Below the pieces are notes generated by a model. The model was not told the DNA's origin. It worked only from the letters and a program-made list of their open reading frames with translations, and did no database searches. Of a DNA stretch of 34,489 nucleotides, positions 27,775 to 31,345 are shown in pieces. Each line of letters opens with the position of its first letter. Positions within the stretch are counted from its first letter, which is position 1. The stretch is from Actinomycetes bacterium (GTDB taxonomy: Bacteria; Bacillota; Sulfobacillia; Sulfobacillales; JAIMBI01). Both the position numbers and the translations under genes were made by a program. The stretch spans positions 1 through 34,489 of the forward strand of contig JAIMBI010000031.1 of assembly GCA_023565505.1 (NCBI GenBank), given 5' to 3'.

Positions 27775-28069
27775 TCTCCTCGTCGAGATCTACGTCTTCG
27801 TCCTGGCGGTGTTCGTGGGGTTCCAGCTCATATCCAAGGTCCCGTCCGTCCTCCACACGCCGCTGATGTCGGCGACGAACGCCATCCACGGCATCATCCT
27901 GGTGGGGGCCGTCACGCTCTTGACGGCCGTGCACGGCGGACTGGTGGTGATCGGCGGGCTCGCGGTCTTTCTGGCGACCCTCAACGTGGTGGGCGGCTTC
28001 GTCGTGACCGACCGGATCCTGGAGATGTTCCGCAAGTCGCCCGACGGCGGGGCGGGGCGATCCGCATGA
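27764..28069 (+). CDS. pntAB: NAD(P) transhydrogenase subunit alpha part 2 (PntAB)
   Basis: A 101-residue membrane protein with three to four helices: EIYVFVLAVFVGFQLISKVP, then LHTPLMSATNAIHGIILVGA and GGLAVFLATLNVVGGFVVTDRIL. These are the standard PntAB motifs (TPLMSxTNAIHG, NVVGGFxVTDRML). It forms part of the proton channel with PntB. The ATG lies within the end of pntAA, and the TGA overlaps the pntB ATG by four bases. Confidence 0.95.
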   Translation: MHADLLVEIYVFVLAVFVGFQLISKVPSVLHTPLMSATNAIHGIILVGAVTLLTAVHGGLVVIGGLAVFLATLNVVGGFVVTDRILEMFRKSPDGGAGRSA

Positions 28070-29454
28070 GTACGCTGACGGCGTGGGCTTACCTGGCGAC
28101 GACCGTGCTCTTCATTCTGGGCGTCATGCGCCTGCGTTCGCCGGCCACCGCACGGTCCGGCAACTTCCTGTTGGCCGCGGGCATGCTCGTGGCCCTGGTC
28201 GTCACGTTCGTGGACGACGGCATCAACCCCTGGCCGGTGATGACGGCGGCGGTGGTGTTGGGGGGCGTGGCGGGCACGGTGTCGGCCCGCTTGGTGCGGA
28301 TGACCGCGATGCCGCAGATGGTGGCCCTGTTCAACGGTATGGGAGGCGGAGCGGCCGCCCTGGTGTCGGCGGGTGAGACCATCCCCCGCTGGTTCGGCGG
28401 CTCCGTCGCGCCGAACGATGCCGCCGCAGCCGTGGCCCTGTTCACGGTGGCGATCGGGTCGATAAGCTTTGCGGGCAGTCTCATTGCCTTCCTCAAACTC
28501 CAGGAATGGATGGAGACCCGGCCCATCACCTACCGCGGTCAGCACTGGGTGAACGCCGTGCTGCTCGCGGTCATCGTCGGGGTCGGCGTCTACTTGATCG
28601 CCGCGGGCTCCGGCGGGGGCCCCTGGTTCCTGGTGTTCCTGGGGGCGTCCGTGCTGCTGGCCCTGTCCGTGGTGGTATCGATCGGAGGGGCCGACATGCC
28701 GGTCGTCATCTCCCTCCTGAATGCGTTGACCGGCCTCGCGGCCGCGGCCACAGGGTTCCTCCTGGCCAACAACGTCCTCATCATCGCGGGTGCCCTGGTG
28801 GGCGCCTCGGGGACCATCCTCACCCAGCTGATGAGCCGCGCGATGAATCGACCGTTGTCGAACGTGCTGTTCGGCGCGTTCGGGCAGATCCAGGCGGGCG
28901 CCGGCCCGGCGACGGTCACGGGGACGGTCCAGACGGCCGATGTCGAGGACGTCGCCATGCTCCTGGCGTATGCGCGGCGGGTCATCGCCGTACCGGGTTA
29001 CGGGCTGGCCGTGGCCCGGGCCCAACAGGAAGTCCGGCAGTTGATGGAAAAACTCGAAGCCCGGGGCGTGGACTTCCGGTTCGCCATCCACCCCGTCGCC
29101 GGGCGGATGCCCGGGCACATGAACGTGCTGCTCGCCGAGGCCAACGTGCCGTACGACAAACTGTACGAAATGGAGGCCATCAACCCGGAGTTTCCCAACA
29201 CGGACGTCGCGCTGGTCATCGGGGCCAACGACGTCACCAATCCTGCCGCCCGGAACGAACCCAACAGCCCGTTGTACGGGATGCCCATCCTCAACGTGGA
29301 TCAGGCCGCGCGGATCATCGTGCTCAAACGGAGCATGAACCCCGGCTTTGCCGGCATCGACAATCCCCTGTACACCAATCCCAAGACGTCCATGCTCTTC
29401 GGGGACGCCAAGGAATCATTGACCAAGCTCATCCGCGCGTTGGACGAGGTGTAG
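28066..29454 (+). CDS. pntB: NAD(P) transhydrogenase subunit beta (PntB)
   Basis: A 462-residue protein with an N-terminal membrane half (about nine helices, including FNGMGGGAAALVS and ADMPVVISLLNALTGLAAAATGF) and a C-terminal NADP(H)-binding domain III. The latter carries GYGLAVARAQ, IHPVAGRMPGHMNVLLAEA, IGANDVTNPAA, GMPILNVDQA and KRSMNPGFAGIDNPL. With PntAA/PntAB it couples inward proton flow to NADPH formation. The start overlaps pntAB (ATGA). A strong GC hairpin follows 13 bases after the stop. Confidence 0.96.
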   Translation: MSTLTAWAYLATTVLFILGVMRLRSPATARSGNFLLAAGMLVALVVTFVDDGINPWPVMTAAVVLGGVAGTVSARLVRMTAMPQMVALFNGMGGGAAALVSAGETIPRWFGGSVAPNDAAAAVALFTVAIGSISFAGSLIAFLKLQEWMETRPITYRGQHWVNAVLLAVIVGVGVYLIAAGSGGGPWFLVFLGASVLLALSVVVSIGGADMPVVISLLNALTGLAAAATGFLLANNVLIIAGALVGASGTILTQLMSRAMNRPLSNVLFGAFGQIQAGAGPATVTGTVQTADVEDVAMLLAYARRVIAVPGYGLAVARAQQEVRQLMEKLEARGVDFRFAIHPVAGRMPGHMNVLLAEANVPYDKLYEMEAINPEFPNTDVALVIGANDVTNPAARNEPNSPLYGMPILNVDQAARIIVLKRSMNPGFAGIDNPLYTNPKTSMLFGDAKESLTKLIRALDEV

Positions 29455-29497: not shown

Positions 29498-30286
29498 TCA
29501 GTAGAGACCCAGCCGTTCCTTGAGCCAGCGGCGGTCGAAGCCGACGGTGACCGCGCCGTCCAGGTCGATGACCGGGATGCCGCGCCGACCCTGCGCCAGC
29601 GCGGTCATGCGGGGGCGCACGGCCGGGTCGGTCAGGGAATGGTCCACATAGGCGAAGCCGTATCGCGAAAGAAACTCTTTCGTCCCGAGGCACACGCTTC
29701 AGGTCGGGGCGGTGTAGAGCTCCAGCCGCGGCCAGGGCACCGAACGGCCGAGGGCGAACCCGGCGGTCGGGGCGTCCAGCGTGTCCGGCAGGGTCAGGGC
29801 ATAGCAGGTGAACCGCGCCACCGTGTCCGGACCCAACCAGACGGTGCGCAGGCGGTCGGTGTCGCCCCACGGCGTCTCGATGTCCAAGGCGGTCCACTCC
29901 CCGTACAGCCGCTGGGCCAGGACCGCGACCTCCTCGGGGGGCGGAGGCGGCGTCGCGCGCCCCGTCACGACACGGTAGCGGAAGCGGATGCGTCCGGCGG
30001 TGTGCCATTCCCGGAGTCGGGCGGCGGCTTCCTCCGTCTTGGCGACCAGCACCAATCCGCTGTCCGGGTCGGCGAGGCGGTGGACCACGCCCGGAGCCGG
30101 GCTGGTTTCCATCTCCGCCAACCAGCGATTGGTCTGGAGGAGGCGGTTGACCAGGGTGCCGCGCCCTGCCGCGTCACGCGGGTGGAGCGGGAGTCCGGGC
30201 GGCTTGTCGGCGACGAGAAAGGTCGGCCCTTCGTACCACAGATCCAGCGGACCCGTGTCGACGGGCAAGAGCGGGTGTTTTTCCAT
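29498..30286 (-). CDS. RluA-like domain fused through an in-frame TGA (putative selenocysteine) to a glutaredoxin domain
   Basis: Read through one TGA, this frame encodes 262 residues. Residues 1-190 resemble RluA pseudouridine synthases: LWYEGPTFLVADKPPGLPLHP, then GVVHRLADPDSGLVLVAKT and IRFRYRVVTGR. The catalytic HRLD is HRLA, and the later GRxHQxR motif is not visible, so this domain may be inactive. Residues 187-262 are a glutaredoxin: LELYTAPT, position 196 encoded by TGA (29699-29701), SVC, LGTKEFLSRYGFAYVD, the cis-Pro segment GIPVI and the GFDRRWL end. TGA replaces the first Cys of CxxC, giving UxxC. A hairpin at SECIS distance follows. ATG at 30286 has AAAGGAG nine bases upstream; no separate start with a ribosome binding site exists for the glutaredoxin part. 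Conventional reading would give a 195-aa protein and a 65-aa fragment (GTG at 29695) lacking its active site. Confidence 0.8.
29663..29688 (-). promoter_or_regulatory. Candidate bacterial SECIS element downstream of the in-frame TGA
   Basis: On the minus strand a perfect 7-bp stem, CGAAAGA and TCTTTCG with loop GTT, spans positions +20 to +36 counted from the U of UGA (29666-29682). It is extended by UCG/CGA with a 3-base bulge (+14 to +39). Bacterial SECIS elements lie in the coding sequence just past UGA, with the apical loop 16-37 bases away and a G among the first loop bases; this loop begins at +27 (G first) or +26 (G second). Function is inferred. Confidence 0.6.
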
Positions 30287-30323
30287 CCTGGCTCGCTCCT
30301 TTCGCCGGGGCGTCCGGGCGCCG

Positions 30324-31271
30324 TCACGCCGGCGGCCGGGGGATGGCGAGGTCGTCGGTGCGGACGGGCAACGGGCTCATCCTCTCGCCCAGGCCGGCAC
30401 GGCAGAGCGCTTCGTAGCCGACCCGGGCCCGATGCACGCGCTCGCGTCCCATCTGGATAGCCTGGGCCTCCCACTGCAGGCCGCTCGGGTAGATGTTGGG
30501 CGCGTTGCGCAGGCCGAACTTGAGATACACCGGGGCGGCGTACTGCACGAAGCCCGCGAGCTCCGCGTAACGGACGAAGCCCCCCACGTCGTCGGGGGCC
30601 TCGACGTAGATGTCCAGCGGGACGGTCGTGATGCGACGGATGGTGGCCAGCTGCTCGAGGGACAGGTCCGTCGGCACGTTGTAGGTCGCAATGCCGGTGT
30701 CGGCCCAGTGCCGGACGGCGATCGGGTTGGCGGCTCCCATCATGACGGAAACCTTGATGTGGAGGTCCGGGGGCCAGAGTCCCGCGGCACGGAGTTGCTG
30801 GGCCAGCACCAGCATGCCGTCGTCGGCCACCAGGACCGACCGGATGCCCCCCGCGTAGGCCCGGAGCGCGTCGTCCAGGGCGGCCCGCACGGCGCTCATC
30901 CCGCGCAGACGCGGCCGGACCACCCCGCCGTTGGGAGCCAGGTGCATCGCACCCGGCTCGAAGCCGGCGCGCGGGCCGAGAAAGAGGCTCACCTCCACCC
31001 CCGCGTCCCGGCCGATCCGCGCCATCTCCCGGATCTCGGCGTCCGTGAGCAGCTGGACGCCGCTGCCCTGGGAAACGCGGTGCACGGGACAATCCAGCCG
31101 GCGAGCCTCCTCCAGCACGGCCTCCAGGACCCGCGGCCCTTCGACCGACGGGATTTCGATGCGCCACGCGCCGCCGTCCCGAAAGCGGTGCGGACTGGGC
31201 TCGCCGAGGCCGTCGTCGGCGGGCAGGTTGAGCCGGGCCAGAAGGTCCCGGGCGTCGGGGAATGCTGTCAT
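30324..31271 (-). CDS. Peptidase U32-like TIM-barrel protein
   Basis: A 315-residue protein of alternating strand/helix pattern. Segments include WRIEIPSVEGPRVLEAVLEEA, VHRVSQGSGVQLLTDAEIREMARIGRDAG, IKVSVMMGAANPIAVRHWADTGIATYNVPTDLS, VPLDIYVEAPDDVGGFVRYAEL and YLKFGLRNAPNIYPSG. The layout and the ordered barrel strands resemble proteins annotated as U32 peptidases, whose true activities vary (several are hydroxylases or tRNA-modifying factors). No protease residues can be named. ATG at 31271 (MTAFPDARDLL). The RluA-glutaredoxin fusion starts 37 bases downstream, so they are probably one operon. Promoter candidate at 31346-31374. Confidence 0.65.
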   Translation of the reverse strand: MTAFPDARDLLARLNLPADDGLGEPSPHRFRDGGAWRIEIPSVEGPRVLEAVLEEARRLDCPVHRVSQGSGVQLLTDAEIREMARIGRDAGVEVSLFLGPRAGFEPGAMHLAPNGGVVRPRLRGMSAVRAALDDALRAYAGGIRSVLVADDGMLVLAQQLRAAGLWPPDLHIKVSVMMGAANPIAVRHWADTGIATYNVPTDLSLEQLATIRRITTVPLDIYVEAPDDVGGFVRYAELAGFVQYAAPVYLKFGLRNAPNIYPSGLQWEAQAIQMGRERVHRARVGYEALCRAGLGERMSPLPVRTDDLAIPRPPA

Positions 31272-31345
31272 GGTCCTGTCCTGCTCCCCTCGTGGGCTTC
31301 GGTGTCGGGTGCCGGGGTCGCTGCCCCCCACGGCGTCTCGAGACC

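What the first reader, a model, noticed from the sequence alone, without database searches (positions are those of the whole stretch)
29498..30286. Putative selenoprotein: RluA-like domain fused to a Sec (UxxC) glutaredoxin
One continuous minus-strand frame is broken only by a TGA at 29699-29701. Upstream of it the RluA-like frame ends LELYTAPT, which is the first strand of a glutaredoxin; downstream it goes on SVCLGTKEFLSRYG, then GIPVI and GFD, the rest of a glutaredoxin. TGA therefore falls precisely on the N-terminal active-site Cys of CxxC. Sec at this position is known for some glutaredoxin-like proteins, but a fusion to an RluA-type domain is not one I know. Standard gene calling would split it into a truncated pseudouridine synthase and a 65-aa fragment without an active site.
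Basis: partly seen in the sequence, partly recalled or inferred. Interest (0 to 1): 0.93.

Follow-up and report, generated by a model that had tools for sequence, protein, structure and literature searches.

The report
Selenium glutaredoxin fused to RluA-like domain
One bacterial gene, which ordinary gene finding cuts in two, joins a part shaped like an RNA-modifying enzyme to a glutaredoxin whose key amino acid is predicted to be selenocysteine; the same joined gene recurs in relatives, so it is likely an undescribed kind of selenium enzyme.

Summary
The minus-strand frame 29498-30286 is interrupted only by TGA at codon 196, and the halves belong together. Of 42 genomes of the order, 23 carry the full-length fusion (26 loci: 20 with one in-frame TGA, 6 without). 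The 6 read TGC there. Two Bacillaceae also have TGA. Codons after the TGA are under purifying selection in close pairs. A bSECIS-like hairpin follows: 21 of 22 TGA genes have at least 7 pairs, none of 6 Cys genes more than 5. The genome has tRNA-Sec, SelA, SelB and SelD. Sec itself was not measured.

The parts
29498..30286 (-). whole gene: RluA-like/glutaredoxin fusion, 262 residues plus TGA stop
29699..29701 (-). in-frame TGA, codon 196, predicted selenocysteine (first residue of UxxC)
   Evidence: aligned with TGC in 6 homologues and TGA in 21 others
29666..29682 (-). bSECIS-like hairpin: arms 29676-29682 and 29666-29672 (7 pairs), loop 29673-29675 beginning with G, 23 bases between TGA and loop
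   Evidence: published model criteria read. Against: it is not the minimum-energy fold of the window's 42-base stretch
29747..30271 (-). RluA-like domain (residues 6-180; the end is my choice)
30071..30073 (-). codon 72 (Ala): position that holds the catalytic Asp in genuine RluA/RluD proteins
   Evidence: alignments; counts. That this Asp is catalytic is recalled knowledge.
29501..29728 (-). glutaredoxin domain (residues 187-262)
30296..30300 (-). AGGAG, likely ribosome-binding site 9 bases before ATG
   Evidence: sequence
30324..31331 (-). upstream same-strand neighbour, U32-peptidase-like, 37 bases before the gene; did not cluster with any gene of the other 23 neighbourhoods
   Evidence: PF01136 30.6 bits, weak TrhP match, neighbourhoods
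28066..29454 (+). convergent neighbour, PntB-like transhydrogenase beta subunit
   Evidence: 420 bits over full length, below the model's cut-off of 689

Best explanation
The gene is one reading frame that joins an RluA-fold domain without the catalytic aspartate to a glutaredoxin domain, its internal TGA is predicted to be read as selenocysteine with the help of the hairpin behind it, and the product likely works as a selenol-based thiol-disulfide reductase that the RluA-like domain would dock onto its target, perhaps structured RNA. Shown here: the single frame, the recurrence of the fusion, the TGA/TGC exchange at the active-site codon, purifying selection after the TGA in close pairs, the hairpin confined to the TGA genes among the 28 compared, and the Sec machinery in the genome. 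Inferred: that Sec is inserted, that UxxC reduces disulfides through an attacking selenolate resolved by Cys199, that the RluA-like part is a docking module and not an enzyme, and that electrons come from a CoA-disulfide-reductase-like flavoprotein, at least in the clade where that gene lies directly upstream. When selenium is short, translation would stop at the TGA and leave the 195-residue RluA-like part alone.
For: TGA in 22 and TGC in 6 of 28 distinct full-length genes at one codon. dN/dS after the TGA of 0.02 to 0.05 in three close TGA pairs (L022/L023, L024/L025, L029/L030). Hairpin stem of at least 7 pairs in 21 of 22 TGA genes and at most 5 in 6 of 6 Cys genes; 219 of 6,721 other in-frame positions of the same genes reach 7. 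Pairing and covariation score reached by 0 of 500 shuffles. Loop position and leading G fit the bSECIS model quoted in PMC13188914. tRNA-Sec, SelA, SelB and SelD in the own genome. RluD fold and glutaredoxin fold in one confident model, pLDDT 94.2 and pTM 0.91. Asp at the catalytic column in 6 of 93 rows (some rows are the same gene from two sources), which otherwise hold A, R, M, E and others, while 6 of 6 genuine RluA-family proteins aligned have HRLD. The Tyr column of motif IIa is Tyr in 88 of 93 (its role is recalled). CoA-disulfide-reductase-like gene upstream on the same strand in 7 of the 24 neighbourhoods examined; the two that I tested matched that family, below its curated cut-off.
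Against: No direct proof of Sec. tRNA-Sec was not found in G037 and G039, two of the 18 genomes of the order with the TGA form, although both have SelA. The window's own 42-base stretch folds no better than shuffles (z 0.44), and its minimum-energy fold is not the hairpin, which appears only in the centroid; L036 and L068 also have z near zero (0.51 and -0.24). L036 has a mismatch in the stem. The number of further pair types is not raised (488 of 500 shuffles reach it). Codon resampling with the hairpin allowed anywhere gives P 0.17 for the window. RNA binding is untested, and I saw no RNA-related gene recurring next to it in the neighbourhoods clustered, where most neighbours were not searched against family models. 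The CoA-disulfide-reductase link covers one clade only, lies in two pieces in L061, and is absent from the window.
Confidence: 0.62

Rival explanations
1. It is the same selenoprotein reductase, but the RluA-like domain has become a protein-binding or purely structural part and RNA plays no role; the protein serves the general thiol pool beside a CoA-disulfide-reductase-like flavoprotein.
For: Catalytic Asp lost. Redox genes are the adjacent partners in some clades: CoA-disulfide-reductase-like gene in 7 of 24 neighbourhoods, a thioredoxin-like gene before L068. The family has a three-residue insertion ending in N53-R54 (N in 92, R in 93 of 93) that the six genuine RluA-family proteins aligned lack, which may be a new interaction surface.
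Confidence: 0.25
2. The RluA-like domain is still an active pseudouridine synthase that uses a shifted acid, invariant Asp75, and the selenol glutaredoxin is its redox switch.
For: Asp75 is invariant in 93 of 93 rows, three residues after the lost Asp, and Tyr104 is kept in 88.
Against: 6 of 6 genuine RluA-family proteins aligned keep HRLD, and have Thr at the column of Asp75. The domain is shortened around the third conserved motif (GRTHQIR becomes GDTxxLR). Only residues up to about 109 match PF00849 by sequence.
Confidence: 0.08
3. The TGA is a true stop: a truncated pseudouridine-synthase-like gene is followed by non-functional sequence, or the TGA is a sequencing or assembly error.
For: Databases carry the ~195-residue truncated product: 37 of 65 family proteins returned end right before the active-site codon.
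Against: dN/dS of 0.02 to 0.05 after the TGA in three pairs, 22 TGA genes and 6 TGC genes at the same codon, and a hairpin tied to TGA.
Confidence: 0.03
4. TGA is read as another amino acid (for example Trp or Gly) throughout this genome.
For: None found.
Against: The gene itself ends in TGA. Homologues have Cys at the codon. A tRNA-Sec with anticodon TCA is present.
Confidence: 0.01

Closest known systems
UXX-star glutaredoxin-like (seleno)proteins (NCBIfam NF041212, NF041114, NF041211)
   Same: Small glutaredoxin-like domain with Sec at the first position of the active-site motif; the window protein matches NF041212 over residues 189-251 with 40.4 bits.
   Different: Below the curated cut-off of 66 bits; here the domain is the C-terminal third of a 262-residue fusion and the motif is UxxC.
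HUGP/GUXX-star fusion selenoprotein (NCBIfam NF045501; also named in the table of PMC13188914, passage seen)
   Same: A UXX-star glutaredoxin domain at the C-terminus of a larger selenoprotein; the best existing precedent for such a fusion.
   Different: Only its glutaredoxin part matches (model positions 169-230 of 236, 19.6 bits, cut-off 325), so its N-terminal part is not matched by the RluA-like domain.
RluA/RluD pseudouridine synthases (TIGR00005, PF00849)
   Different: Asp at the catalytic column missing in 87 of 93 rows, no room for the N-terminal S4 domain (recalled for RluD), shortened second half; TIGR00005 50.1 bits against a cut-off of 192.7.
Selenoprotein glutaredoxins (PF00462, UxxC; table of PMC13188914, passage seen)
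   Different: Those are known as small stand-alone redoxins (recalled); here the domain is fused to a pseudouridine-synthase-like pseudoenzyme.

Membership tests
bacterial selenoprotein | in-frame TGA aligned with Cys in homologues | tested here: met
   22 TGA, 6 TGC of 28 distinct genes
bacterial selenoprotein | Sec machinery in the same genome | tested here: met
   tRNA-Sec, SelA, SelB, SelD, all above cut-off
bacterial selenoprotein | bSECIS: loop 3-9, stem 4-16 pairs, G in the first two loop positions, 16-37 bases from UGA | tested here: met
   7-pair stem, loop GTT, 23 bases (criteria from the passage read)
bacterial selenoprotein | bSECIS: minimum free energy of -7.5 kcal/mol or lower | tested here: inconclusive
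   The window's 42-base stretch has -9.8, but that minimum is another fold and z is 0.44; the energy of the hairpin alone was not computed
bacterial selenoprotein | Sec present in the protein | not testable with these tools
   needs 75Se labelling or mass spectrometry
UXX-star family NF041212 | score at or above the curated cut-off of 66 bits | tested here: not met
   40.4 bits for the window protein
HUGP/GUXX-star fusion NF045501 | score at or above the cut-off of 325 bits with the HUGP part matched | tested here: not met
   19.6 bits, model positions 169-230 only
RluA pseudouridine synthase (enzyme) | catalytic Asp in HRLD | tested here: not met
   Asp in 6 of 93 rows, Ala in the window protein
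RluA pseudouridine synthase (fold and homology) | PF00849 match and RluD fold | tested here: met
RluA pseudouridine synthase (enzyme) | pseudouridine formation | not testable with these tools
   needs an assay
glutaredoxin PF00462 | score above the gathering cut-off, CxxC/UxxC and cis-Pro motif | tested here: met
   29.4 bits, cut-off 22.9; UxxC and an invariant I237-P238 (the cis-Pro role is recalled)

The most novel reading that the evidence does not exclude
A selenoenzyme that works on RNA: the dead pseudouridine-synthase domain still grips a uridine-like base in ribosomal or transfer RNA and presents it, or a protein beside it, to a selenol that repairs oxidised thio- or seleno-nucleosides or ribosome-bound disulfides. 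It would be a redox repair tool for the translation machinery in acid- and metal-stressed bacteria.
Probability: 0.15. Interest if true: 0.92.

Novelty: new variant of a known kind. Interest (0 to 1): 0.68.

Why it matters
It adds a selenoprotein family that standard annotation hides: 37 of the 65 family proteins returned by two database searches end just before the active-site codon. It also links selenium-based redox chemistry with an RNA-modification fold. Sec and Cys forms occur within one clade of genes and even side by side in one genome (G029), and among the 28 genes compared the hairpin is found only with the Sec forms, so it is a compact natural system for studying how SECIS elements and Sec are lost and gained. 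If the RluA-like part binds RNA, it would open the question of selenol-dependent repair or control at the ribosome.

Tried and rejected
Rejected: plain stop, sequencing error, a general TGA recoding (see rivals). Rejected as a functional clue: protein P0045 (a domain named PF02852 and the RluA-like domain in one frame). It corresponds to a decayed second copy in genome G034 (L082) with stops in both parts; G034 also has a full-length TGA copy (L036).

Led nowhere: conserved neighbours of the window gene. The U32-like gene upstream did not cluster with any gene of the other 23 neighbourhoods. Codon-resampling controls were mixed: with the hairpin at its fixed place P is about 0.01 for the window, L027 and L057 and 0.0008 for L068, but 0.78 for L028, whose hairpin is shifted; with the hairpin allowed anywhere P is 0.17 (window), 0.02 (L027), 0.07 (L028), 0.005 (L057), 0.17 (L068). 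The phylum-wide draw (398 genomes taken evenly from a larger group, E at most 1e-25) gave 3 genomes, the own one and two of the same order. The family of Bacillus pinisoli has only three genomes held, one of them positive, itself. No Rfam family reached its cut-off in the window, and no tRNA gene was found in it.

Literature: seven searches gave no listed title or abstract start that describes an RluA/glutaredoxin selenoprotein (0 papers; 4; 12; 4; 10 listed of 51; 15 listed of 42; 1). One search listed 10 of 10,471 papers and led to the review; one search served the SECIS criteria. Passages only were read in PMC13188914 ('pseudouridine' and 'rlua' occur 0 times), PMC12013277 (0 occurrences of the five terms), PMC7409299, PMC4378227, PMC5322559, PMC6211008 and PMC1088965. 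Haft and Tolstoy 2025 (mSystems), the most likely place for such a family, is not held; I know it only through PMC13188914.

Rows dropped: L048 was left out of the 28-gene counts as a copy of L019, and of other loci that two tools returned only one copy was used. P0046, P0047 and P0069 were left out of the 65 family proteins as ordinary RluA-family proteins. The 93 rows are these 65 plus the 28 and are not free of doubles (for example P0054 and L069, both with Asp at the column, look like the same gene). One search printed only gene pairs with dS under 2 before the TGA.

Full report
The frame. On the minus strand, 30286 to 29498 reads ATG to TGA with one internal TGA at codon 196. AGGAG lies 9 bases before the ATG. 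The read-through protein has 262 residues, with PF00849 over residues 23-109 and PF00462 over residues 189-244, both above the gathering cut-offs.

Recurrence. A search of 42 genomes of the order found the full-length arrangement in 23 genomes and 26 loci; 20 loci have exactly one in-frame TGA and 6 have none. The other matches in that call are partial: ordinary RluA-family or stand-alone glutaredoxin frames. A scan of genome contigs gave 23 loci, mainly Sulfobacillus and unnamed Bacillota, plus two Bacillaceae at 38% identity, Bacillus pinisoli and Terrihalobacillus insolitus. In a set of 28 distinct genes (the 26 and the two Bacillaceae; duplicates removed), 22 have TGA and 6 TGC at the one codon. 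A tree needs three Sec/Cys changes (2-3 across bootstrap trees; two are forced by well supported branches). The phylum-wide draw of 398 genomes gave only the own genome and two of this order. A database search from a Cys member returned 46 proteins, and one from the B. pinisoli member returned 25, including a full-length, hence Cys, form in Alkalihalobacillus deserti. Of the 65 family members among these, 37 end right before the active-site codon and 25 are full Cys forms; of the other three, P0025 is an N-terminally cut Cys form, P0045 the decayed copy, and P0067 unclear.

Selection after the TGA. In three close TGA pairs, dN/dS after the TGA is 0.04, 0.02 and 0.05, lower than before it (0.14, 0.09, 0.10). 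In the very close set L057/L058/L062 the values after the TGA are 0.15-0.17 against 0.12-0.17 before it, also well under one. The more distant pairs printed range up to 0.56 (window against L034), with synonymous changes near saturation, so I lean on the close pairs.

Hairpin. The TGA genes share a stem of 7 or more pairs whose loop starts 23 bases after the TGA (22 in the shifted L028): 21 of 22 TGA genes have an uninterrupted stem of 7 or more, and the exception (L036) has a mismatch in a similar stem. The 6 Cys genes have at most 5 pairs; 219 of 6,721 other in-frame positions of the same genes, those overlapping the hairpin included, reach 7. On the alignment of 22 TGA genes, 90.9% of cells pair; none of 500 shuffles reaches the observed pairing or covariation score, 5 reach the 4 pairs with both sides changed, and 488 reach the number of further pair types, which is thus not raised. 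Slid versions pair in at most 65.3% of cells. Some both-side changes (columns 19, 25, 26) come from L028 and L036, whose hairpin lies one base nearer the TGA; in register, the compensatory changes are A-U to G-C at columns 23/33 in the two Bacillaceae and A-U to C-G at 26/30 in L057, L058 and L062. In L028 and L036 the same motif AAGAGTTTC is kept while the encoded residues differ (KSFL for KEFL), which suggests selection on the RNA. The six Cys genes pair in 64.6% of cells, and 47 of 500 shuffles reach that. Against this, the window's own stretch has z 0.44 and its minimum-energy fold is another one; the hairpin is in the centroid. Of the six TGA stretches folded, z runs from -3.02 to 0.51. 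The published bSECIS model (PMC13188914, passage read) asks for a loop of 3-9, a G in its first two positions and 16-37 bases spacing, which are met, and a minimum free energy of -7.5 or lower, which I could not assign to this hairpin in the window.

Machinery. The own genome (3.12 Mb, completeness 97.6, contamination 6.62) has tRNA-Sec at 74.3 bits with anticodon TCA, SelB 357, SelA 561 and SelD 367 bits, all above cut-off. Among 18 genomes of the order with a TGA form, 15 have tRNA-Sec at E up to 1e-9; G029 has a match over cut-off at the end of the stretch held that ARAGORN did not call; G037 and G039 have none over cut-off but have SelA. Of five genomes with only the Cys form, four have tRNA-Sec, and the fifth, G016, has SelA, so the Cys form does not simply follow loss of Sec use. 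Both Bacillaceae have tRNA-Sec and SelA.

Neighbours. In 24 neighbourhoods (window plus 23 loci) a gene of one cluster lies directly upstream on the same strand in 7, with 66-157 bases between; in L061 it is in two pieces. Two of the seven were searched, and match CoA-disulfide reductase models best (357 and 413 bits, cut-off 579). The 7 belong to the one supported clade of 8 genes that holds both Sec and Cys forms. A thioredoxin-like gene precedes the B. pinisoli gene. Other clades have isocitrate-lyase/malate-synthase and oxidase neighbours (gene names here are my reading of the sequences, not a family search), three have a cation-efflux gene upstream (one tested), and the window has a U32-like gene upstream and a PntB-like gene downstream. 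Context therefore supports thiol redox work in some clades and says nothing firm about RNA.

Novelty. The 28 members match 18 NCBIfam release 20 models at E up to 0.001: RluA-family models for the first part and redoxin or redoxin-fold models, UXX-star ones among them, for the second; none is named for a fusion of the two. For the window protein each match is below its curated cut-off; one search does not show the scores of the other 27. A HUGP/GUXX-star fusion is a known precedent for a Sec glutaredoxin domain on a larger protein. JGI names one Cys member '23S rRNA-/tRNA-specific pseudouridylate synthase/glutaredoxin', so the two-domain arrangement has been noticed by automatic annotation. 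I found no description of the Sec form in what the searches listed (two of these lists were capped), with the gap that Haft and Tolstoy 2025 was not held.

Noticed in passing
L071 1501-2427 (own genome C41:15678-16604): SelD of this genome has one in-frame TGA near its start (SGUG in the read-through), so selenophosphate synthetase is itself likely a selenoprotein.
   Followed up: partly
L081 1001-1219 (own genome C7:138401-138619): A stand-alone UXX-star-like glutaredoxin with TGA at the active site (TTPTUPHC) lies elsewhere in the same genome.
   Followed up: partly
L082 (genome G034, contig C203): A decayed second copy of the fusion next to a decayed CoA-disulfide-reductase-like gene, read partly as one frame (protein P0045); both seem to decay together.
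   Followed up: partly
genomes G006, G007, G009, G018, G019, G028, G032, G033, G036: Nine of 42 genomes of the order have two or three tRNA-Sec genes above the cut-off, often one strong and one weaker; why is unknown.
   Followed up: no
L084 about 1004-1195 (genome G005): Another stand-alone TGA glutaredoxin-like frame (GTPTUSDC) in a genome where no tRNA-Sec was found above the cut-off.
   Followed up: no
window 30324-31331: A U32-peptidase-like gene with a weak match to the tRNA hydroxylase TrhP lies 37 bases upstream on the same strand.
   Followed up: partly
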